A DNA stretch of 64,000 bases from Miscanthus floridulus (Eukaryota > Streptophyta > Magnoliopsida > Poales > Poaceae): assembly GCF_019320115.1 (NCBI RefSeq), contig NC_089584.1, positions 73,439,533 through 73,503,532 on the forward strand, written 5' to 3'. Both the position numbers and the translations under genes were made by a program. Shown here in pieces: positions 41,601 through 56,156 of the stretch (position 1 is the stretch's first letter; every line of letters begins with the position of its first letter). Below the pieces are notes generated by a model, which saw nothing but the letters and a program-made list of their open reading frames with translations, made no database searches and had not been told where the DNA came from.

Positions 41601-41605
41601 AACAA
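41601..41605. repeat. Target-site duplication AACAA of gypsy-3, left
   Basis: AACAA before TGTGGCAGAACC matches AACAA at 54571-54575 after GGTGTTACA. Confidence 0.92.
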
Positions 41606-44600
41606 TGTGGCAGAACCTCCTAAATTATAGGGCCCACATGCACCTGTCACTGTCCGACGACCTTTGACATCTGTGCCTATGTTTCCGATAACTTAAGAAG
41701 ACTGTCAGGGTGTCCTCGGGGAACCCCGAATCATCCACGATTTCCGAGCAGGATCACGTTACAGAGTCATTGCAGTATTACAACATTTATTCAAATATCT
41801 ACACCAGAGTAAAAACAATGGAAGTCTTACAATAACATAATTTACAAACAGTAGCTTCAAACCTCACAACTAAGTTCGATGATTATTACAAAACAAAATA
41901 GTGGAGTGGCATTATAATATAGTACAAAACACACAATGAAACTGCCCTGCCCAAGGGCCACACATTTACTTCTCATCATCATCACAAGGAACAACCAGTC
42001 ATGCAGCACGATCCAAAATAGATCTGCTCATGAGCCTCACCTGCAACAAGGGGTCAACGAACCCTGAGTACAAAAGTACTCAACAAGACTTAACCTGAAA
42101 TAAAACTGAAAAGACTCAGGAATGCAGGCTTAAGGATTCAAGGTATGGTTTTAGCAATAATCAAAGTTATTTTGCGTAAAAGCTCTTTAACAAAATTCTT
42201 TATTTCAACAGTTAAAATTTCATAAGTACCACATACGAAATCTATCATGATCCGTAATGAGATCATGAACTTCATATCAATCTCTTTCTCAAACCATACT
42301 CAAGTTCCAGTTATTAATTACTACGATGATGAACAGTGAGTTGAGTCTCCTATAACCGAGGAGCAACGACGATTCGAACCGATTAAGCCCAGCTAGGGGA
42401 TTCCAGACCACACGACATATGTAGGTCCCCAGACCTACATATACCAACCTACTCTCAGATCCTCTAAAACAAGAATGGGTCCACGCCACCCGAGAATATA
42501 GTACTCCACCATTCCAGCCCATGGTCACGTGGGTACACGCTATTCCCACCATCTCTCCACTCCTAGTGCACGAGTAGCCATTCTTGTACTAGAATCGCCA
42601 AGTTAAGGCTTACCAGAGTATGTGGTTAGTACTATAAATTCTCACCTCATGCAATTCAACAACGGACGTGTCTTAATCGACATAGGCGGAAAGAACCCGC
42701 TCACAAGACCTCTATGTCTTGTGGCTCACACACACCGAGTCCGCCCGGTCTAGATTTATTACTCCACATTCCCATATCACATGATAACTTAAGTAACCAA
42801 AGTTCCATATAAAACTTGCAGGTGGCAGGTAATCACCTGACTTTCATCGTTCTAAGCATAGCTAAGCAAAACTAGGCATATACGAATTTAAGACTGGTAA
42901 TATGGTAAGTATGGAATAACAAGGTTGGTAATGTACCAATTTGGTTTGTACTTGACTCCTAATCACTTAATGCAGTAAAAAGAAGCAAAAGCGAAATCAA
43001 TTTGAAAAATACAAGGTAGGGTTGTATGCATCCAGGGGCTTGCCTTCGTTGACGGAAAGTCCGGTTCCTGCGACTGTTTCACAAGTATTCGATCCAACCT
43101 CAATAGACAGGACTAACTTCCTCAGCAACTTGGTTAACTATCACATGTTCACCTTCATTCACTACATGTAGTAGCAATACCATGTTTAACATGATGCAGA
43201 ATACGAAACATGATGCTTGATGATGATGCAAAATTTAACAATTCGAATATAACTGTCCTTCGCGGTACAGTGGCAAGTCAAACTAATTAAACCTTTTTCG
43301 CAACACCCAAATCAATTGCCAAGGATCATTATCAACTAATGACCCAAGGACATCACTCAATCAAAAATTCAAACAAAACATAAATCACTAAAGGTTACTA
43401 TTTGCTTTTATGAATTAATTAATTAATTAAGAATTATGAAATAAATCAACTTGTTCCAATTGACCTCAAAATATTTGTAAATGTTCATTACATGATAACT
43501 AAGTGGCAAAACAAATTTCATAATTTTTGGATAAATAAATAAGCCTAGAAAAATCATGGAAATTCATTTATTAATTAATTGAGCAATTTTCATCACATTC
43601 AAAAAGTATTGAAAAACATTATTTCATATTTTTCTTAAATATTATACATCACAGTAGAAGTCACACAAAAATGTTCATAATTTTTGGAGCTCTAAATAAA
43701 TCTACACAAAAATAACAAATTACATCACTATTCATTCAAATTTGAAAATAGAAAAATCCATTTTGAACTACACAGCCACTGACATCCGGGTCCCACCTAT
43801 CATCCCCAACCTCTGGCTTTGACTGCGACTGGCGACGGCGCTGACCGGTGCTAACTCGCCGACGGTGAGTCCTAACGGCGACGGCCAAAGTACCAAAACA
43901 CTCACAACAACATGGAGCATCGATTGGAGACACTAGCTAACTCAAGTCACGACACTGATTCAAGGCTGACGCCTGGCCATGGCGGACGCGGTGGCATGGC
44001 AGCACTATGCCGGCGATGTGAAACCAGTAGAGCTTAAACAAAGGATCTAGGAAGCACCAGTAGCTCACCTCGAATGCATTGAAGCAAGAAGCGAGGTCGG
44101 AGAAGCAACGGAGAGACGTGACGACGACCACGGTGATCACGGCGGAGCAAAGATCATCGGTGAGGGAGAACCGGTGACTGCAGTGATCAAAATGAGCAAG
44201 CAACAAAGGATTAAGCACCATATCATTGAGATGAAGCCATAGGCGCACAGATCACGGACAATGGCTCACCGAAGGATGCTGGCCGTGGAGAAACATAATC
44301 TCGGGTGAGGTGGCCGGCCGCGAGGAAGAAAGCGACAAACAGTGAACTCACGATGAAATCAATCGACCAGAGCTAGCTGGCTGGGTGTGCAAGGAGTAGG
44401 CGAAGCTATCAAGTATTATGCCATGACGGTGAAGACGCTACCGCGATGGTGCGAGCTCGTCGGAGATGAGCCAGGCGACGGGAAAACAGAGAAGGAAACG
44501 ACAATGACAACGGCGGCTCAGGTTATAAAGGATGGCCAGGAAGCGCAAGAAAGCCACAGCGAAGCCATTTCCCTCGCCAGCGCGATGCCCAGACGGCCAT

Positions 44601-45208
44601 GCGCACGACTGGAAGCAAGCCGAAGGGTCACCGGCAATGTAGCAAGAGCGGTGAACACTGTTCAACGAAATTACAGAATTGCCATCCAGTTTAAAATCCA
44701 AATTACTCCCAAATTTGTATAACAACTCAAAAATCTCCAAAAATAAAAGTTGTTCGAAATTAAAAGTTCTACAACTTTTCTTTTATAACTAACCCCAAAT
44801 TCGGTCTAGATTTTGAAATGAACTTTTGAATTCGAATAGGGGAAATTTAACGAATTACGCCTTTTTGAATTACTCCAAATTTTTTCATAACAACTTTGAA
44901 AACTCCAAAAACAAACTTTGTATAACTTGTCAAGCTCTACACTTTTGCTTTTGGGCTCAACCCCAAAATATGCTTAGATTTTGAAATGAGTTTTCAGGGT
45001 AGGATTTAAATGCTGAAAATCAGAGTTTTCGGAATTTCAAATCAATACAAAGATTTTAGAACTTGATTCAAACAATACCAAGCAATGCTTATAACATAAA
45101 TGTAAACTTGTTTTAGTGAATGCATACAAAGTTTTCAATATGACCAAATGCCTTGCAATGCATACGATGACATGGCAGTTTTAGTATTTAAATACCCGAG
45201 GTGTTACA
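41606..45208 (-). repeat. 3' LTR of gypsy-3
   Basis: Plus-strand borders TGTGGCAGAACC and ACCCGAGGTGTTACA. It contains a GC-rich block (43780-44640) with open frames shared with the other LTR, and a repeated AATTAATTAATTAATT run near 43416. Confidence 0.93.
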
Positions 45209-45224
45209 ATCCTTCCCCCTAAAA
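45209..45224 (-). promoter_or_regulatory. Polypurine tract of gypsy-3
   Basis: On the minus strand TTTTAGGGGGAAGGAT directly precedes TGTAACACC. Confidence 0.85.
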
Positions 45225-45370
45225 GAAATCTCGCCCCAAGATTCAAAGCCATAGGGTAAGTAATGGAAAAGGAAATGTGTCGCGAGTACACATACAAGAT
45301 CTATCCATAAAACAGCTGAGGTCCTTTTATAAAACACAATTTGTAACAACCTAGCTCAACTAACATTACT

Positions 45371-46285
45371 CTATATTGACGCCAGAAACTCTGGAAAATT
45401 TTCTAATAAGTAATCTTCTGATTCCCAAGTAGCTTCTTCTTCTTAATGTTGATTCCATTGTATCTTCTTGAACTTGATTGTCCTTCTTCGAGTAACACAA
45501 TCTTTCTGATCCAAAACTCGGATAGGATATTCTAAATAAGTCAAATCTGGTTCAAGTTCCACTCCTTCAACCTCAATATTCTGCTCAGGCACTCGGAGAC
45601 ACTTCTTCAATTGAGAAACATGGAACACATCATGCACAGCTGTGAGATGTTCAGGTAATTTCAAGTGATATGCCACTTTTCCATACCTCTCCAAAATTTG
45701 ATATGGTCCAATATATCGAGGTGCCAACTTGCCTTTAACACCAAAATGGGTAACTCCCTTCATTGGTGACACTTTCAGATATACAAAATCTCCTTTGTTA
45801 AACACCAATGGTCTACGTCGTTTATCCGCATAACTCTTTTGTCAGGATTAAGCTATCTTCAAATTACTTTGTATTTGCTTAACCTTGTCTTCTGTTTCTT
45901 TCACAAGGTTAACCCCAAAGAATCTTCTTTCTCCAGACTGAGACCAACTCAGCGATGTTCTGCACCTACGACCATAGAGTGCTTCAAATGGAGCCATTCT
46001 AATGCTTTCCTGATAACTATTGTTGTATGAGAACTCGGCCAAAGGCATTCATCCCACTTTTTGGAATAGTTAAGAACACAACATCTTAACATATCTTCAA
46101 GTACTTGATTGACTCTTTCAGTCTGACCATCAGTCTGGGAATGATAAGCTGTACTGTACAGAAGTTTGGTACCTAACGAAGCATGTAAGTGTTTCCAAAA
46201 GCTAGAGATGAACTGTGTACCCCTATCTAACACTATGGTCTTTGGTACTCTATGTAAGCTCATGATTCTTGCTAAGTACATCTTG
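45371..46285 (-). pseudogene. gypsy-3 integrase core end, C-terminal domain and chromodomain
   Basis: From the second catalytic Asp (VLDRGTQF) and the Glu in QTDGQTERVN, through PLAEFSYNNSYQ, to the basic domain (GDFVYLKVSPMKG, LAPRYIGPY, FHVSQLKKCL). It ends in a chromodomain-like tail (EEEATWESEDYLLENFPEF). A TAA near 45443 replaces one residue just before the chromodomain. Frame changes occur near 46050 and 45835. The TAG at 45371 ends the polyprotein. Confidence 0.86.
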
Positions 46286-46930
46286 GCATATTAGATCATA
46301 GGATATATAGTCTTGACAGGAAGAAAATGTGCTGACTTAGTGAGTCGATCTATAATAACCCATACTGAGTCAAATCCCTTGGATGTCTTGGGTAGACCAA
46401 CAATAAAGTCCATACTTATGTCCTCCCACTTCCAAGATGGAATAGGTAATGGTTGTAATTCACCAGCAGACCTCAAATATATAGCTTTCACCTTTTGACA
46501 AGTATCACACTTTGCTATATATCTAGCAATCTCTATTTTCATTTTAGTCCACTAGAATCTTTGATTCAAGTCATGGTACATCTTGTTGCTTCCTGGATGG
46601 ATAGATAACCTAGTAGCATGTGCCTCGTCTAGAATTGACTGCTGCAACTTAGGAACCTTTGGCACCACCAGGCGATCCTTGAACCATAGCACACCTTCAT
46701 CATCTATGCTAAAGCATTCTGCTTTTCCATTCTTGACTCTTTCCTTGATATGGGCTATACCCTTGTTTTCCTTCTGAGCAGCAACAACTTGATCTCGAAT
46801 ATTGGCTTCAACAATTATGTTGGTCAAGCTACCTTGTTGAATTACTTCTACATTCAATTTCTCCATTTCTTGGCATAAAGTCAAACCCATTGTTCTCACT
46901 GCCAGACAATTGCAATAACTTTTGCGACTA
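46286..46930 (-). pseudogene. gypsy-3 integrase zinc finger and start of core
   Basis: Contains the HHCC finger (EAHATRLSIHPG ... CDTCQKVKA) and the first catalytic Asp in ISMDFIVGLP. Upstream is the linker with VLWFKDRLVVP. Stops near 46551 and 46290 break it. Confidence 0.84.
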
Positions 46931-48066
46931 AGGGCATCTACAACAAATTTGCTTTACCGGGGTGATAATGTACTTCCAAGTTATAATCTTTAATCAGTTC
47001 TAACCATCTTCTTTGTCGCATGTTCAACTCTGACTGAGTAAAGATATACTTTAAGCTTTTGTGGTCTGTATACATATGGCACGTATTACGAAGCAGGTAA
47101 TGCCGCCAAATCTTCAGAGCATGAACCATAGCTGCTAACTCTAGATCATGAGTCAGATAGTGTTCTTCATGTTGCTTAAGTTGCCTAGATGCATAAGCAA
47201 TGACTCGGCCTTCTTGCATCAACACACATCCAATACCAATACCTGAAGCATCACAATAAACATTAAATGGCTTCTCGATATCAGGTTGGGCTAATACTGG
47301 TGCAGTAGTCAACAATCTCTTCAAAGTCTGAAAACTTGACTTGGTTCTTCAACAATTCAGTTATGGACTTTGATACTTTAGAGAAATCTAGAATAAACTG
47401 ACGGTAATACCCCGCCAATCCTAGAAAACTCCAAACTTGATGAACTATGGTTGGTGGTTTCCAATCAAGCACATCCTTCACTTTGCTTGAATCAACTACA
47501 ACGCCTTCAACTGACAAGACATGTCCAAGAAATTATACTTCCTTAAGCCAGAAATCACATTTGCTGAACTTGGCATATAGTTGATGTTCTCTCAAACGGG
47601 TCAGAACAATTCTGAGATGTTCCGCATGTTCTTTCTTATTCTTGGAATATACTAGAATGTCATCAATAAACACCACTACAAACTTGTCTAGCTCAGGCAT
47701 GAATACTGAATTCATCAGATACATGAAATGAGCTGGAGCATTTATCAAACCAAAAGACATTACCAAGTATTCATATAATCCATATCTTGTGGTAAATGCC
47801 GTTTTGGGAATATCTTCAGGCTTTATCTTGATTTGGTGATATCCTGACCTCAAATCTATCTTGGAGAAAACTTTGGCTCTGGCCAATTAATCAAAAAGCA
47901 AATCTATCCGAGGTAATGGATACTTATTCTTGATGGTCACTTCATTCAACAGACGATAGTCGACACATAACCTCAGGGTCTCATCTTTCTTTTTCACAAA
48001 AATTGCCGGACATCCCCAAGGTGATGAACTAGGTTGGATAAACCCCTTCTCAATCAATTCTTGTAA
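46931..48066 (-). pseudogene. gypsy-3 reverse transcriptase and RNase H
   Basis: RT has [15 protein letters not shown], the FIDDIL box and [14 protein letters not shown]. RNase H has [11 protein letters not shown] and an intact [11 protein letters not shown]. Between them, after LLKNQVKF, a short deletion (about 20 nt) shifts the frame. The RNase H frame starts again at [15 protein letters not shown]. Stops at about 47530 and 47887 also interrupt RT; the latter is at a Gln position. Confidence 0.87.
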
Positions 48067-48699
48067 CTAAGTCTTCAACTCAGCCAATTCCTTAGGTGGC
48101 ATCCTATAAGCTCTTTGAGAAATCGGAGCTGTTCTAGGTTGCAACTCTATGTTAAACTGTACATCCCTATCAGGTGGTAGACTGGGTAAATCTTTAGGAA
48201 ACACATCCAAAAATTCACACACTACCGGGATATCTCTAATTTCTTTGACAGCAGTTGCACATATCTTGCCCACTGATCTTCTTAAGGTTGGAAGTTGGAT
48301 GAGAAGTTGAGAAGTACTATCAGGCAAACTTACCCTTAAAGTTCTATTCAAAGCATCTATAACAGCCTTATGCTGATACATCCAATTCATTCCCAAGATT
48401 ACATCTATATCTTGATCCTTAAGGATAATCATGGTAGTGGGAAAAATATGCCCACTCAGGTTTATGGGTACCTGGTGTACCATTTCCTTAGTACACAGAC
48501 GTCCCCCGGGCGACTGTATAAAGAAATTTTCCTTTGTTGCCCCAATTAAAATTTCATACTTCATGACAAATGTTCTATTGATGAATGAATGCGATGCGCC
48601 AGAATCAAAAAGTATAACTACGGGGTGATTGGCAATAGGAAACATACCCATCATCACTGGCTCCCCTTCCAGAATTTCTCCAGCTTGAATATAGAACAC
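48067..48699 (-). pseudogene. gypsy-3 aspartic protease
   Basis: Active-site VILFDSGASHSF, second motif IDVILGMNWM, then the linker EFLDVFPKDLPSLPP. This segment is open over 210 codons and looks intact apart from the stop near 48067 that separates it from RT. Confidence 0.87.
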
Positions 48700-49844
48700 C
48701 CGTCCTGTCTTCCTCTCATCTTTGCCCTTCTGAGCATTCTGATTGGGGTTCTTGTTTGGTGCCTGACCCTGTTGTTGATTGGCAGGGGCCTTCTGATAAT
48801 TTTGATTAGCCTACCTGGGATATGGACATTCCCTGGAGAAATGACCAGTCCTTCCACAATTGTAACACGGATAGTTGTGACCCTAGGACGTTGGAGCATT
48901 GCCACCAGGAGCATTGGTCGACTATGAATTTGGGTAGGTTATAGCAGGACGGACATTTAACTATTGCCCGGCTTGGGACTACGACGGATGATAAGAAGGA
49001 TGATTATGATGTACTGGATGATAAATCACCCTCTGCCTCTTCTAATTTCCTCCAAAGGATCCAGACGGCATACTCTTTTTTGTCTTTAGCTCCTTATGCT
49101 GCCGATACTTTGCCTCTGAAGCAATTGCAATATTTACTGCCTCATGGTAAGTGACATTGGTACAGGTGGTCATCATAGTCTGCAATTTGGTATTCAGGCC
49201 TTTCATAAACCACCTCTTCTTCTTAGCATTAGTATTGACATGTTCAGATGCATATTGTGACATGTGATTGAATCTTCCCACATACTGCATCACTGTTTGA
49301 TCTCCTTGCTTCAAAGCAAGGAATTCATCCAGCTTCATAGCCATAACTCCTTTGGGATATAATGGGCTCTGAAGGCGGTATGGAACTCAGCCCAGGTTAT
49401 TGGAATGCCAACTGGTTGCATAGCCACTAAGTTTGCCCACCAAGCACTTGCTGCTCCTCTAAGTTGCTGAGCGACAAACGCAGGTTTCTGATACTCCGTG
49501 CATGGAATAAGATCAAATTTCTGCTCCATGGTTCAAAGCCAGTCATCAGCCTCCAATGGTTCATCTGCCTTGGTGAACACCGGTGGTCTTGTGTCTGTAA
49601 AATCAACATATGTAGCCTCCTGTCTGTTATGGTGGTGACCACAGTTTCTGTGCATCTGATTCTGATTACTCTGAGCTATCTCATGAAGCAAAAGAGAATT
49701 TTTGGCCGTCACATTGATAAGTGCGGTTATAGCATCAGCCAGATTTGTTGGAACTAGTGGCAGATCTAGAATACCATCCTCATCTTGTGAAGTTCCAGGA
49801 ATATACGAACCCCACGTACGATGCATCTGCTCATAATAAACCAA
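48700..49844 (-). pseudogene. gypsy-3 gag with zinc knuckle
   Basis: Starts near MVYYEQMHRTWGSYIPGTSQ. The capsid block contains AAQQLRGAASAWW-type sequence (seen as QQLRGAASAWWANL), FRAHYIPKELW, and MKLDEFLALKQGDQTVMQYV. A complete CCHC knuckle, CYNCGRTGHFSREC, lies near 48830-48872. Stops at 49533 (where a Trp or Gln is expected) and 49040 and frame changes near 49335 break it. It packages element RNA. Confidence 0.85.
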
Positions 49845-50004
49845 ACTTTATTCACAAGTCTTTATTGATTTGCACCAAAGCTTACTCCAGACACATTACA
49901 TAGAGTTTACTTAATATAAACACAAACCCGCAAGTACCAAAACAAGACTACATAACTTAACTAGAACTAACTATTATACAACTCTACTCCTTTCCTTGAT
50001 TACT

Positions 50005-50577
50005 TCAAACTTTAGGCTCGGTATCCATTCCGGAATTATTACCGCCTTCATTATCACTTTCATCGATCATTACTAATTCTTCAGGATCTTCTTCTTCTTC
50101 TTCTTCTTCCGATTCATCATCATCGGCAAGGATGACACTAGGGTCCATGGCATCAGCTTGGGGCTCATGATTTGGATTTAGTAGATTGCTAAGCCTATGA
50201 ACTTCCTCATGTAGATAAGTATTATGTTTTTCTAAATCTTCTACATAGAATTCTAGCTCATGAGTTCTAGCTCTAGCTATATTTTCCCTATGCCATGCTT
50301 CATTCCTTCCCTCCACTGTATGAACTAACATACTTTCGCAGTTCCTATGCGCGGTGGTGAGATGCCTCAATTGATCCTGTAATTCTCCTACCTGTATAGC
50401 ATCCAAAGCCCTATCTCTAGTAGCTTGTGCTAACTCTACAGAAATCCTCTATATCTCTACCTGGGGATCAGGCCTAGAGCTGCTACTGCTAACACCGTCA
50501 TTCCTAGGGGCAAGTTGGTGATGAGGAACTCCTTTGGGTCCAGTGGACTTATGGGGCGTCATCTTGGTATGAGCCAT
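50005..50577 (-). pseudogene. Accessory ORF upstream of gag: histone-H3-tail-like N-terminus, coiled coil, acidic tail
   Basis: The minus-strand ATG at 50577 opens MAHTKMTPHKSTGPKG, followed by VPHHQLAPR. Aligned with the histone H3 tail (ARTKQTARKSTGGK...QLA), Ala1, Thr3, Lys4, Thr6, Lys9, Ser10, Thr11, Gly12 and Lys14 coincide. With one inserted residue, so do Pro16, Gln19, Leu20 and Ala21. The H3 Arg2 and Arg8 positions are His with CAT codons, one transition from CGT. A Ser-rich linker follows, then a predicted coiled coil (residues about 55-125) and an acidic run of seven Glu. One in-frame TAG lies at codon 43 (50449-50451). It sits between the primer site and gag, about 190 codons. Function is unknown, and the H3 resemblance is my own alignment. 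Confidence 0.72.
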
Positions 50578-50966
50578 ACTGTAGGAAGCCAATTTAATCC
50601 AAATAAGATCATTTGATCAAAGTCTAAAGAGCAGCTATGATGGATTATATTACTCAAACCAGACTCACTACTCAACTCCAGACTCAGAGGTGAAGGAAGT
50701 AACTAGTAAATTAATCATGATGCATGAATCGTTCTTATAAACAAAAACATCAAAGTTTATAATGCACATAAACAACATTTATTTTTATATAGGGCATAGT
50801 AAGATTACTACTCCACCACGCAAAACCTTTTTAATTAAATAAGGAATGGTGAGAAAGAAATAAGATAAGTCAAAAGCAATTTGGACCAAATTATCAAGTT
50901 AAATTTAGTCATCCAAATCATTTTGAAGTTTTTGTAAAACAATACAACAAAAACCTTGTAACGATC

Positions 50967-50978
50967 GCTCCGATACCA
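50967..50978 (-). promoter_or_regulatory. Primer-binding site of gypsy-3
   Basis: On the minus strand TGGTATCGGAGC, one mismatch from the initiator tRNA-Met complement, three bases after the LTR end. Confidence 0.87.
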
Positions 50979-50981
50979 TTC

Positions 50982-53900
50982 TGTGGTAGAACCTCCTAAA
51001 TTATAGGGTCCACATGCACCTATCACTGTCCGACGACCTTTGACATCTGTGCATATGTTTCCGGTAACTTAAGAAGACTGTCGGGTGTCCTCGGGGAACC
51101 CCGAATCATCCATGATTTCCAAGCAGGATCACGTTACAGAGTCATTGCAGTATTACAACATTTATTCAAATATCTACACCAGAGTAAAAATAGCGAAAGT
51201 CTTACAATAACATAATTTACAAATAGTAGCTTCAAACCTCACAACTAAGTTTGATGATTATTACAAAATGAAATAGTGGAGTGGCATTATAATATAGTAC
51301 AAAACACACAATGAAACTGCCCTGCCCAAGGGCCACACATTTACTTCTCATCATCATCACAAGGAACAACCGTCATGCAGCATGATCCAAAACAGATCTG
51401 CTCATGAGCCTCACCTACAACAAGGGGTCAACAAACCCTGAGTATAAAAGTACTCAACAAGACTTAACCGAAATAAAACTGAAAAGACTCAGGAATGCAG
51501 GCTTAAGGATTCAAGGTATGGTTTTAGCAATAATCAAAGTTATTTTGCGTAAAAGCTCTTTAACAAAATTCTTTATTTCAACAGTTAAAATTTCATAAGT
51601 ACCACATACGAATCTGCCATGATCCGTAATGAGATCATGAACTTCATATCAATCTCTTTCTCAAACCTTACTCAAGTTCTAGTTATTAATTACTACGATG
51701 ATGAACAGTGAGTTGAGTCTCCATAACCGAGGAGCAACGATGATTCGAACCGATTAAGCCCAGCTGGGGATTCCAGACCACACGACATATGCAGATCTCC
51801 GATCTACATATACCAACCTACTCTCGGATCCTCTAAAACAAGAACGGGTCCGCACCACCTGAAAATACAGTACTCCACCATTCCAGCCCATGGCCATGTG
51901 GGTACACGCTATTCCCGCCATCTCTCCACTCCCAGTGCGCGAGTAGCCATTCTCGTACTAGAATCGCCAAGTTAAGGCTTACCGGAGTATGTGGTTAGTA
52001 CTACAAATTCTCACCTCATGCAATTCAACAACAGACGTGCCTTAATCGACATAGGCGGAAAGAATCCGCTCACAAGACCTCCATGTCTTGTGGCTCACAC
52101 ACACCGAGTCCGCCCGGTCTAGATTTATTACTCCACATTCCCATATCACATGATAACTTAAGTAACCAAAGTTCCATATAAAACTTGCAGGTGGCAGGTA
52201 ATCACCCGACTTTCATCGTTCTAAGCATAGCTAAGCAAAACTAGGCATATACGAATTTAAAACTAGTAATATGGTAAGTATGGAATAACAAGGTTGGTAA
52301 TGTACCAATTTGGTTTGTACTTGACTCCTAATCACTTAATGTAGTAAAAAGAAGCAAAAACAAAATCAATTTGAAAAATACAAGTTAGGGTTGTATGCAT
52401 TCGGGGCTTGCCTTCGTTGACGGAAAAGTCCGGTTCCTGCGACGTTTCACAAGTATTCGATCCGACCTCAACAAATGGACTAACTTCCTCAGCAACTTGG
52501 TTAACTATCACGTGTTCACCTTCGTTCACTACACGTAGTTGCAATACCATGTTTAACATGATGCAGAATACGAAACATGATGCTTGATGATGATGCAAAA
52601 TTTAACAATTCGAATACAACTTTCCTTCGCGGTACAGTGGCAAGTCAAACTAATTAAACCTTTTTCGCAACACCCAAATCAATTACCAAGGATCATTATC
52701 AACTAATAACCCAAGGACATCACTCAATCAAAAATTCAAACAAAACCTAAACACTAAAGGTTACTATTTGCTTTTATGAATTAATTAATTAATTAAGAAT
52801 TATGAAATAAATCAACTTGTTCCAATTGACCTCAAAATTTTTGTAAATGTTCATTACATGATAACTAAGTGGCACAACAAATTTCATAATTTTTGGATAA
52901 ATAAATAAGCCTAGAAAAATCATGGAAATTCATTTATTAATTAATTGAGCAATTTTTATCACATTCAAAAATTACTGAAAAACATTATTTCATATTTTTC
53001 TTAAATATTATACATCACAGAGAAGTCACACAAATTTTTCATAATTTTTGGAGCTCTAAATAAATCTACACAAAAATAACAAATTACATCACTATTTATT
53101 CAAATCTGAAAATAGAAAAATCCATTTTGAACTACACAGCCACTGACATCCGGGTCCCACCTGTCATCCCCAACCTCCGGCTTTGACCGCGACGGCGATG
53201 GCGCTGACCGGTGCTAACTCGCCGAAGGTGAGTCCAACGACGACGGCCAAAGTACCAAAACACTCACAACAACATGGAGCATCGATTGGAGACACTAGTT
53301 AACTCAATCACGGCACGATTCAAGGCTGACGCCGGCCATGGCGGACACGGTGGCACGGTAGCGCTACGCCAGCGACGTGAAACCAGTAGAGCTTAAACAA
53401 AGGATCCAGGAAGCACCAGTAGCTCACCTCGAACGCGTTGAAGCAAGAAGCGAGGTCGGAGAAGCAACGAAGAGGTGTGACGACAACCACGGTGATCACG
53501 GCGGAGCAAAGATCGTCGGTGAGGGAGAACCGGCGACTGCAGTGATCAAAACGAGCAAGCAACAAAGGATTAAGCACCACAGCATCGAGACGAAGCCGTA
53601 GGCGCACAGATCACGGACAACGGTTCACCGGAGGATGCTGGCCGCGGAGAAACGTAATCTCGGGTGAGGTGGCCGGCCGCAAGGAAGAAAGCAACGAACG
53701 GTGAACTCACGACGAAATCAATCGACCAGAGCTAGCTGGCTAGGTGCACAAGGAGTAGGCGAAGCTATCTAGTGCTATGCCGCGACGGTGAAGACGCTAC
53801 CCGCAACGGTGCGAGCTCGCCGGAGATGAGCCCGGCGACGGGAAAACAGAGGAGAAGGAAACGGCAATGACAACGGCGGCTCAGGTTATAAAGGATGGCC

Positions 53901-54570
53901 AAGAAGCGCAAGGAAGCCATGGTGAAGCCATTTCCCTCGCCAGCGCGACGCCCAGACGGCCACGCGTGCGACTAGAAGCAAGCCGAAGGATCGCCGGCAA
54001 TGTAGCAAGAGCGGTGAACACTGTTCAACGAAATTACAGAATTGCCATCCAGTTTAAAATCCAAATTACTCCCAAATTTGTATAACAACTCAAAAATCTC
54101 CAAAAATAAAAGTTGTTCAAAATTAAAAGTTCTACAACTTTGCTTTTTATAACCAACCCCAAATTCGGTCTAGATTTTGAAATGAACTTTTGAATTCGAA
54201 TAGGGGAAATTTAACGAATTACGCCTTTTCGAATTACTCCAAATTTTTTCATGACAACTTTGAAAACTCCAAAAACAAACTTTGTATAACTTGTCAAGCT
54301 CTACACTTTTGCTTTTGGGCTCAACCCCAAAATATGCTTAGATTTGAAATTAGTTTTCAGGGTAGGATTTAAATGCTGAAAATCAGAGTTTTCGAAATTT
54401 CAAATCAATACAAAGATTTCGAACTTGATTCAAACAATACCAAGCAATGCTTATAACATAAATGTAAACTTGTTTTAGTGAATGCATACAAAGTTTTCAA
54501 TATGACCAAATGCCTTGCAATGCATATGATGATATGGTAGTTTTAGTATTTAAACACCCGAGGTGTTACA
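50982..54570 (-). repeat. 5' LTR of gypsy-3
   Basis: Plus-strand borders TGTGGTAGAACC and ACCCGAGGTGTTACA. It aligns along its whole length with 41606-45208. Confidence 0.93.
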
Positions 54571-54575
54571 AACAA
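54571..54575. repeat. Target-site duplication AACAA of gypsy-3, right
   Basis: Matches 41601-41605. Confidence 0.92.
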
Positions 54576-55311: not shown

Positions 55312-56156
55312 GGAAAAAGTCTACTTAACTCCCACCTTTCATACTTGGTCTACTTCACCCTAACTATGAAACCATCTGTTTTACCCCCTGAACTTTTCAA
55401 AACCGTCTATTTTACCCTCTGGCGGTTTTCAGCGGTGGTTGCTACAGTACAGAGGGTTTTGAATTTTAATTTGTTTTATTTATTTTCGGTGAATTTTTGA
55501 AAAATCATAAAATAAAAAATCTAATTTTATTGTACTCCACATGAGTAGATCTACACAGTGAATATATAATACGGTATGCTTTAGTACAAATTTTTTACTG
55601 TAGCCTTAGATTAATTGAAAAATCTAATTTTGTCTGTAATTAATTGGAATAATTCATAGCTGCAGCTTCTATGGTCTAATTATGGTGAAATTTTTATGGT
55701 ACGCTAATTATTGTATGCTTGAACTATAGTAAAAATTTCGTACTCATTGGACTATGTATAACTTAGTTATAGATAAATTCTAATTAATTACAGATAAAAT
55801 TAGATTTTCTAATTAATCTAAAGCTACAAAAAAAAATTTGTACTAAAGCATACTGTATTATATATTCAATGTGTAGATCTACTCACGTGGAGTCCAATAA
55901 AATTAGATTTTTCATTTTATGATTTTTCTACGATTTACTATGATTTTTCAAAAATTCACCGAAAATGAATAAAAAAAAAAAATTTCAAACGCACCGGCAA
56001 TGTAGCAAACGCCGTTACTACTGTAGCAACCGCCGCTGAAAACCGCCCAGGGGTAAAATAAACGGTTTTAGAAAGTTCAGGGGTAAAACAGACGGTTTCA
56101 TAGTTGGGGGTGAAGTAGACCAAGTATAAAATGTGGGGGTTAAACAGACTTTTTGC
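55312..56156. mobile_element. 845-bp fold-back Mutator-type non-autonomous element
   Basis: Left end GGAAAAAGTCTACTTAACTC and the inverse of the right end (GCAAAAAGTCTGTTTAACCC) begin long inverted repeats of roughly 350 bp each. These share the ACTTGGTCTACTTCACCC, AACTATGAAACC and GTTTTACCCC segments and the AAATCTAATTTTATTG block. The centre is about 130 bp, AT-rich. No coding sequence. Imperfect arms and a 9-bp duplication suggest a MULE-type MITE. Confidence 0.75.

What the first reader, a model, noticed from the sequence alone, without database searches (positions are those of the whole stretch)
50449..50577. Retrotransposon accessory protein that opens with a histone-H3-tail look-alike
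The ORF upstream of gag in gypsy-3 starts MAHTKMTPHKSTGPKG. Against H3 (ARTKQTARKSTGGK) nine of fourteen tail residues coincide, including Lys4, the Thr6...Lys9-Ser10-Thr11-Gly12 block and Lys14. After a one-residue gap Pro16 and Gln19-Leu20-Ala21 also coincide. The two arginines at H3 positions 2 and 8 are His encoded by CAT, one CG-type transition away from CGT. The ORF then has a coiled coil and a Glu-rich acidic tail. The same element encodes an integrase chromodomain, a domain class that reads H3 Lys9 marks. A speculative reading is a histone mimic that could be modified like H3 and engage the element's own chromodomain or host chromatin readers. I know of no description of this.
Basis: partly seen in the sequence, partly recalled or inferred. 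Interest (0 to 1): 0.88.

Follow-up and report, generated by a model that had tools for sequence, protein, structure and literature searches.

The report
Retrotransposon protein with histone-H3-like tail
A plant jumping gene carries a small extra protein whose first 21 or so residues resemble the tail of histone H3, and the likeness is kept in very different relatives, so it probably works by engaging the plant proteins that normally handle histone tails.

Summary
On the minus strand at 50577-50005, between the 5' LTR and gag of a Tekay-type element (41606-54570), an ORF0 starts MAHTKMTPHKSTGPKGVPHHQLA; 13 of 23 positions match histone H3 1-23. None of 2,000,000 shuffles does as well. This copy is decayed: stop at codon 43, His at H3 positions 2, 8 and 17. 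Relatives are closer: ARTKQTARKKTGPKGVPRHQLA, ARTKITARKSTGPHGVPRHQLA. A profile of 16 N-termini against PDB sequences returns H3 or H3-tailed chains in all 60 rows shown, best E 7e-8. In 141 database proteins Lys9 is kept in 140 and position 4 is Lys or Arg in 141. Between two clades the rest is 43% identical, the N-terminus 77% with dN/dS 0.16; within the window's clade no extra constraint shows. A model has a free tail, one long helix and an acidic end. I read it as a conserved H3-tail mimic, most likely a decoy or pseudosubstrate for host H3-tail-binding silencing proteins. Binding is untested. ORF0 itself is published; my searches found no report of the H3 likeness.

The parts
50503..50574 (-). 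H3-tail-like segment, ORF0 codons 2-25 (AHTKMTPHKSTGPKGVPHHQLAPR)
   Evidence: relatives
50005..50577 (-). ORF0 (5' additional ORF), 190 codons plus stop, interrupted by a stop at codon 43 in this copy
50449..50451 (-). in-frame TAG (codon 43) that breaks ORF0 in this copy
50179..50466 (-). stretch matching the long helix (residues 38-133 of the relative P0001)
   Evidence: AlphaFold2 model of P0001, block pLDDT 95-98 for residues 41-130; position transferred by residue number
50041..50124 (-). acidic C-terminal tail (DDDESEEEEEEEDPEELVMIDESDNEGG)
   Evidence: relatives
50982..54570 (-). 5' LTR, 3589 bp
41606..45208 (-). 3' LTR, 3603 bp; 95.65% identical to the 5' LTR over 3583 aligned bases
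54571..54575 (.). target-site duplication AACAA (+ strand)
41601..41605 (.). target-site duplication AACAA (+ strand)
50967..50978 (-). probable primer-binding site TGGTATCGGAGC just inside the 5' LTR
   Evidence: identification as an initiator-tRNA type site is recalled
49042..49844 (-). gag remnants (PF03732 on the 49045-49344 piece; other pieces by position only)
46938..48699 (-). protease (PF08284), reverse transcriptase (PF00078) and RNase H (PF17917) pieces
45443..46953 (-). integrase pieces (PF24626 over its cut-off; PF17921 and PF00665 below theirs) running into a frameshifted chromodomain remnant not detected by Pfam
   Evidence: intact form in sister copies

Best explanation
ORF0 of this Tekay-type chromovirus family encodes a molecular mimic of the histone H3 N-terminal tail. 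SHOWN by sequence: residues 1-21 follow H3 in order and register, with one inserted Gly and near-fixed changes at H3 positions 13, 15, 18, 22 and 23; the segment starts at the initiator Met as in H3; it is the best-conserved part of a fast-diverging protein. PREDICTED: the tail is disordered and free, followed by one long helix and an acidic end. INFERRED: Met removal exposes the N-terminus as in H3; the helix pairs into a coiled coil and so shows two or more tails at once; these engage host proteins that bind the first ~21 residues of H3, around the kept Arg2, Lys/Arg4, Thr6, Arg8, Lys9, Thr11 and Pro16-Arg17-x-Gln-Leu-Ala. Most likely use (about 0.35 on its own): a decoy or pseudosubstrate that keeps H3 methyltransferases, LSD1-type demethylases or H3-tail readers away from the element's chromatin, as the SNAG domain does to LSD1; less likely, recruitment of such a protein to the particle or integration complex.
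For: Window match 13/23, 0 of 2,000,000 shuffles. P0137 against the PDB: 124 sequences at E<=1, the 60 shown are all H3 or H3-tailed (one row named Cse4), best E=0.0049. Profile of 16 N-termini that I chose to span the groups: 141 sequences at E<=10, the 60 shown all H3 or H3-tailed (one Cse4), best E=7.3e-8. 141 proteins match H3 at 11-17 of 23 positions; 18 groups formed on the rest of the protein (136 of the 141; 13 groups are single proteins) average 14.8, and 0 of 100,000 column permutations reach it. Lys9 140/141, Thr6 137/141, Thr3 136/141, Lys or Arg at 4 in 141/141. In a 35-protein alignment both invariant and 10 of 15 nearly invariant columns lie in the first 25 residues. Clade A versus C in the own genome: N-terminal identity 0.77, dN 0.21, dS 1.31, ratio 0.16; rest 0.43 identical; four single pairs give Fisher p from 0.0019 to 1.1e-7. 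Model: free tail, helix 38-133, free acidic end. Precedent for a decoy: GFI1 SNAG peptide blocks LSD1 (PMC5896174, passages).
Against: No binding, modification or expression data. Within clade A the N-terminus is not slower than the rest (ratio 0.47 versus 0.20), and 14 of 24 intact copies carry Thr3 to Ala. Ser10, Ala7, Gln5 and Lys14 are not conserved across groups. One large group has MPPRTR or MARTR starts, so the exact N-terminus and Lys4 are not universal. The 141 proteins were chosen by a script that asked for the register, a P..Q/L/A-type motif and at least 9 template matches, so counts at 16 and 19-21 are biased. Exceptions outside the 141: P0020 has Met at 9, and P0048 and P0070 lack the tail altogether, leader sequence running straight into the helix region.
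Confidence: 0.55

Rival explanations
1. Targeting tether: the mimic is methylated at the Lys9 equivalent and is then read by the element's own integrase chromodomain or by a host H3K9me reader, bringing the particle or integration complex to heterochromatin.
For: Lys9 kept in 140/141; sister elements encode an integrase chromodomain (PF00385 over its cut-off in L054, just below it in L050 and L053); the partner of plant type II chromodomains has not been found (PMC3350952 passages; PMC6317226 passages).
Against: In the aligned stretch the chromodomain keeps the Trp but has His for Tyr; Ala7 is Pro in 36 and Gln in 24 of 141; published dicot Tekay elements have type II chromodomains without a similar ORF (PMC3485330, PMC11728184, PMC3605345 passages).
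Confidence: 0.13
2. Nuclear import or chaperone route: the H3-like tail is an import signal that uses the importins or chaperones of newly made H3.
For: Grass 5' aORF proteins are predicted to be nuclear (PMC11728184 passages); the segment is basic and without structure in the model. That importins bind H3 tail residues is recalled.
Against: A simple import signal would not need the register and the uncharged matches Thr3, Thr6, Gln19, Leu20, Ala21 to be kept; Lys14, thought important for import (recalled), is K in 40 of 141.
Confidence: 0.14
3. Unrelated function: a basic leader under selection for something else (RNA binding, capsid contact), alike to H3 by chance.
For: Some of the most conserved residues (Gly insert, Val15, His18, Pro22, Arg23) are not H3 residues.
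Against: 0 of 2,000,000 shuffles; only H3 or H3-tailed chains in the 60 best PDB rows; the likeness is higher in several distant relatives.
Confidence: 0.12
4. Fossil of a captured H3 gene start, kept by inertia without an H3-related role.
For: Continuous match from Met1 over about 21 residues with one insertion looks like homology rather than short-motif convergence.
Against: Synonymous sites have changed far more than amino acids between clades; little codon-level trace of host H3 (third positions agree at 4-6 of 15-16 matched codons).
Confidence: 0.06

Closest known systems
ORF0 / 5' aORF of grass Tekay elements (Retrosat2, RIRE3, RIRE8, FRetro3, ZMsat2, Sorsat2)
   Same: Extra sense ORF upstream of gag in a chromovirus with LTRs over 3 kb; fast-evolving; predicted nuclear in grasses (PMC3485330, PMC11728184; passages).
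   Different: Those papers give ORF0 no settled function, with guesses of hydrolase or double-stranded-RNA-binding likeness; the word histone does not occur in the main text of either. Their ORF0 sequences are not held here, so direct identity is untested.
Influenza A NS1 histone mimic (ARSK)
   Same: A parasite protein with an H3 1-4-like motif that binds H3-tail proteins (PMC10612106 passages).
   Different: NS1 has a 4-residue motif in its C-terminal tail without a free N-terminal amine; ORF0 has about 21 residues at the N-terminus.
SNAG domain of GFI1/SNAI1
   Same: N-terminal peptide that mimics the H3 tail and fills the LSD1 pocket (PMC5896174 passages).
   Different: Host transcription factors; that SNAG has little sequence identity with H3 is recalled.
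Anti-silencing accessory proteins of VANDAL transposons
   Same: Plant transposon accessory proteins that counter silencing (mentioned in PMC11728184, passages).
   Different: DNA transposon proteins acting sequence-specifically; no H3 likeness known to me (recalled).

Membership tests
Grass Tekay ORF0 / 5' aORF | Sense ORF between 5' LTR and gag | tested here: met
   ORF0 50577-50005 on the minus strand, 5' LTR inner end at 50982, gag pieces from 49844 downwards
Grass Tekay ORF0 / 5' aORF | LTRs longer than 3 kb | tested here: met
   LTRs 3589 and 3603 bp with a 5-bp target duplication
Grass Tekay ORF0 / 5' aORF | Integrase chromodomain of type II (first and usually third cage aromatic missing) | tested here: inconclusive
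   Chromodomain present downstream of sister ORF0s: PF00385 over its cut-off in L054, just below in L050 and L053; third aromatic is His; the first cage position was not covered by the best alignment; broken in the window copy
Grass Tekay ORF0 / 5' aORF | LTR termini TGTCACACCC...GGGCGTGACA as in Retrosat2 and RIRE8 | tested here: not met
   Here TGTAACACCTCGGG...ACCACA: if related, a different family
Grass Tekay ORF0 / 5' aORF | Sequence identity to published RIRE3/RIRE8/Retrosat2 ORF0 | not testable with these tools
   I found no route to those records in the collections offered
Histone H3 | Core histone fold (PF00125) | tested here: not met
   PF00125 is in none of the rows shown for 10 ORF0 relatives at E<=1 (for P0142 only 25 of 62 rows were shown); model is a single helix
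Histone H3-tail mimics | Sequence likeness to an H3 segment beyond chance | tested here: met
Histone H3-tail mimics | Maintained by selection | tested here: met
   N-terminal dN/dS 0.16 between clades A and C (Fisher); not seen within clade A (0.47 versus 0.20 for the rest)
Histone H3-tail mimics | Binds or is modified by H3-tail proteins | not testable with these tools
   needs peptide binding and enzyme assays

The most novel reading that the evidence does not exclude
Tekay retrotransposons make a pseudo-histone: a coiled coil that displays several near-complete H3 tails, modified at the Lys9 and Lys4 equivalents by host enzymes, which jams H3K9 methylation and H3K4 demethylation at newly expressed elements, and may also be the missing partner of plant type II integrase chromodomains.
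Probability: 0.25. Interest if true: 0.95.

Novelty: new variant of a known kind. Interest (0 to 1): 0.82.

Why it matters
Histone mimics are known from viruses and host factors, often as motifs of a few residues (NS1 has four). A retrotransposon family with a mimic of about 21 residues at the N-terminus would give ORF0 a first testable function, offer a candidate partner for the unexplained type II chromodomains, and suggest that a transposon fights H3-based silencing by imitating H3 itself.

Tried and rejected
Recent capture of a host H3 gene: not supported. Ten host H3 loci (six distinct starts; 10 fetched of 150 histone matches listed) agree with ORF0 at 4-6 of 15-16 third positions of matched codons. 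Ancient capture is not excluded.

Conservation of DNA rather than protein: rejected between clades. In four single A-C pairs synonymous sites differ at 0.58-0.82 and nonsynonymous at 0.15-0.17.

Chance likeness of a Lys/Thr/Ser-rich leader: rejected.

Relatives in viral contigs: one scan, 12 stretches held the pattern, none was confirmed as a relative. Pfam on ten ORF0 relatives: every row shown lay below its curated cut-off. The window copy's own chromodomain was not detected by Pfam; it is broken.

Left open: published RIRE3, RIRE8 and Retrosat2 ORF0 letters, and the species behind the database proteins, which are unnamed.

Full report
WHERE IT IS. The finding lies in a long-terminal-repeat retrotransposon on the minus strand. 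LTRs are at 50982-54570 and 41606-45208 (3589 and 3603 bp, 95.65% identical, 140 transitions and 16 transversions; about 1.7 My at an assumed 1.3e-8 per site and year), flanked by the same 5-bp repeat AACAA. Inside are a probable primer site, ORF0 (50577-50005), gag, protease, reverse transcriptase, RNase H and integrase pieces. The integrase is in pieces and the chromodomain frameshifted in this copy. Stretches fetched 2-8 kb downstream of sister ORF0s carry a chromodomain: PF00385 over its cut-off in L054, just below it in L050 and L053. I class it as a Tekay-type chromovirus from this anatomy and the published descriptions; no reverse-transcriptase tree was made. The host genome is 2.68 Gb, unnamed; that it is a grass is inferred from published ORF0s being grass-only (PMC3485330, passages and section 14).

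THE OBSERVATION. ORF0 reads MAHTKMTPHKSTGPKGVPHHQLAPRNDG..., with a stop at codon 43. Against H3 1-23, 13 positions match, counting one inserted Gly. None of 2,000,000 shuffles of the same residues reaches 13 with any single gap, and of 889 ATG-led 24-mers in the window the next best scores 9. Alone in a database search it is not significant (H3 first at E=0.4, p53 next at 0.5).

RELATIVES. A whole-protein search found 240 proteins (120 listed). A search with the first 45 residues of P0004 found 55 of 56 candidates at E<=1. A profile search found 3347 at E<=1 (7992 candidates scored, 120 listed). In all, 249 proteins were fetched. A script took 141 as carrying the N-terminus; it demanded a Met in register, a P..Q/L/A-type motif and at least 9 matches to a template, so the counts at positions 16 and 19-21 are biased upward. 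Of the 108 others, 13 still show the motif without the full register, and 95 do not. Of the 95, P0020 does have the tail, with Met at position 9 and Ala for Pro16. P0048 and P0070 lack it: leader sequence runs straight into the helix region, by deletion or splicing. The remaining 92 are pieces that, as far as their starts show, begin at an inner Met of the helix region. Distant relatives are often closer to H3 than the window copy: P0137 MARTKQTARKKTGPKGVPRHQLAPR, P0142 MARTKQTARKMTGPKG..., P0149 MARTKITARKSTGPHG..., P0151 MARTKTTARKSTGPKG....

DATABASE TEST. P0137 against 177,635 distinct PDB sequences gives 124 at E<=1; the 60 shown are all H3 or H3-tailed chains (one row named Cse4), best 0.0049. 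A profile of 16 diverse N-termini, chosen by me to span the groups, gives 141 at E<=10; the 60 shown are again H3 or H3-tailed (one Cse4). The best is 7.3e-8 for an H3 fragment and 7.7e-7 for a whole H3 chain.

CONSERVATION. Over the 141 proteins: Lys9 140, Thr6 137, Thr3 136, Gly12 125, Arg2 123, Arg8 121, Thr11 117, Ser10 112, Ala1 82, Lys4 69 with Arg in the other 72, Ala7 59, Lys14 40, Gln5 4. Over 18 groups made on the rest of the protein (136 of the 141; 13 groups are single proteins): Lys9, Thr3 and Thr6 18/18, Arg8 17, Ala7 8, Ser10 5. Mean group match is 14.8 of 23 against 2.6 for permuted columns, maximum 9.4 (0 of 100,000). In a 35-protein alignment both invariant and ten of 15 nearly invariant columns lie in the first 25 residues.

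SELECTION. In the same genome a second clade (L029-L048) starts MAKTKKTARKSTGPHGVPRHQLAPR or close to it. Between 10 intact clade-A and 17 intact clade-C copies (of 48 loci then held), N-terminal identity is 0.77 with dN 0.21, dS 1.31 (ratio 0.16), while the rest is 0.43 identical with saturated dS (the 170 pairs are not independent). Four single pairs give Fisher p from 0.0019 to 1.1e-7. Against this, inside clade A the N-terminus is not slower than the rest (0.47 versus 0.20). In 47 of 48 sampled clade-A loci (L004 dropped for lack of the N-terminus; the sample is the best matches of three searches and includes the window copy as L001) a Thr3-to-Ala form makes up 14 of 24 intact copies, and nonsynonymous changes from the majority codon number 82 (27 at CG sites) against 57 synonymous. 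Lys4, Lys9 and Ser10 are unchanged in all 47. Arg2 is intact in 24 of 24 whole copies and in 15 of 23 broken ones (p=0.0016), in line with decay at CG sites; Arg8 and Arg17 show no clear difference.

ORIGIN. Ten host H3 loci with six distinct starts share 4-6 third positions of 15-16 matched codons with ORF0. This speaks against recent capture; ancient capture and convergence remain. The continuous register from Met1 and changes common to nearly all relatives (Pro13, Gly insert, Val15, His18, Arg23) favour one origin.

SHAPE. AlphaFold2 on P0001 with 34 relatives: residues 1-37 without structure (block pLDDT 53-58 for 1-30), helix 38-133 (blocks 95-98 for 41-130), acidic end without structure; mean pLDDT 75.7, pTM 0.42. 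Pairing of the helix is inferred.

MECHANISM. What is kept is a footprint over H3 1-21 with an almost fixed Lys9, an always basic residue 4, and loss of Ser10, Ala7 and Lys14 in many groups. That suits a pseudosubstrate or decoy for proteins that grip a long stretch of the tail better than a chromodomain ligand or an acetylation switch (the contact preferences are recalled). SNAG domains are the precedent: N-terminal H3 mimics that fill the LSD1 pocket and block demethylation (PMC5896174, passages). The own-chromodomain idea is weak: the third cage residue is His, as in type II domains in general, whose partner is unknown (PMC6317226, PMC3350952, PMC3605345, passages). An import signal and an unrelated role remain possible.

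LITERATURE. ORF0 is known as an extra ORF without settled function (PMC3485330: passages and section 14; PMC11728184, PMC7264820, PMC6317226: passages). 'Histone' does not occur in the main text of the first three and occurs once in the fourth, about chromodomains. Searches for a description of the H3 likeness showed none in their listings: searches (listed in full; 15 of 2086, 20 of 3909 and 10 of 46 listed), in a library of open-licence papers that misses most subscription journals. A 2011 survey of such ORFs by Steinbauerova and colleagues is cited in papers seen but was not itself seen.

Noticed in passing
own-genome clade-A copies such as L020, L022, L025, L027, L028: A form with Thr3 changed to Ala (MARAKMTPRKST) makes up 14 of 24 intact clade-A copies sampled, against 6 of 23 broken ones.
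   Followed up: partly
P0048 and P0070: Two database proteins have leader sequence (for P0048 it resembles the LTR-end reading frame at window 50835-51026) joined straight to the ORF0 helix region, without the H3-like tail; deletion or splicing could make a tail-less ORF0.
   Followed up: no
hits: Many of these proteins carry bacterial names from their source such as 'glutamine synthetase type III' or 'chromosome segregation ATPase'; probably plant DNA in metagenome samples.
   Followed up: no
P0154, P0155, P0171 and others: A large ORF0 group begins MPPRTRKTARKSTGP or MARTRKTARKSTGP, with Arg at the Lys4 place but an intact TARKSTG block.
   Followed up: partly
41606-45208 versus 50982-54570: LTR differences are 140 transitions to 16 transversions, which suggests decay by cytosine methylation.
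   Followed up: no
55380-56088: Nested inverted repeats (arms 55489-55650 / 55777-55938, 90%; 55380-55449 / 56019-56088, 87%) next to the element.
   Followed up: no
50041-50124 and relatives: The acidic end often keeps an EEEDPEE-type motif and the helix end an LHEEVHxL-type motif across groups that otherwise differ widely.
   Followed up: no
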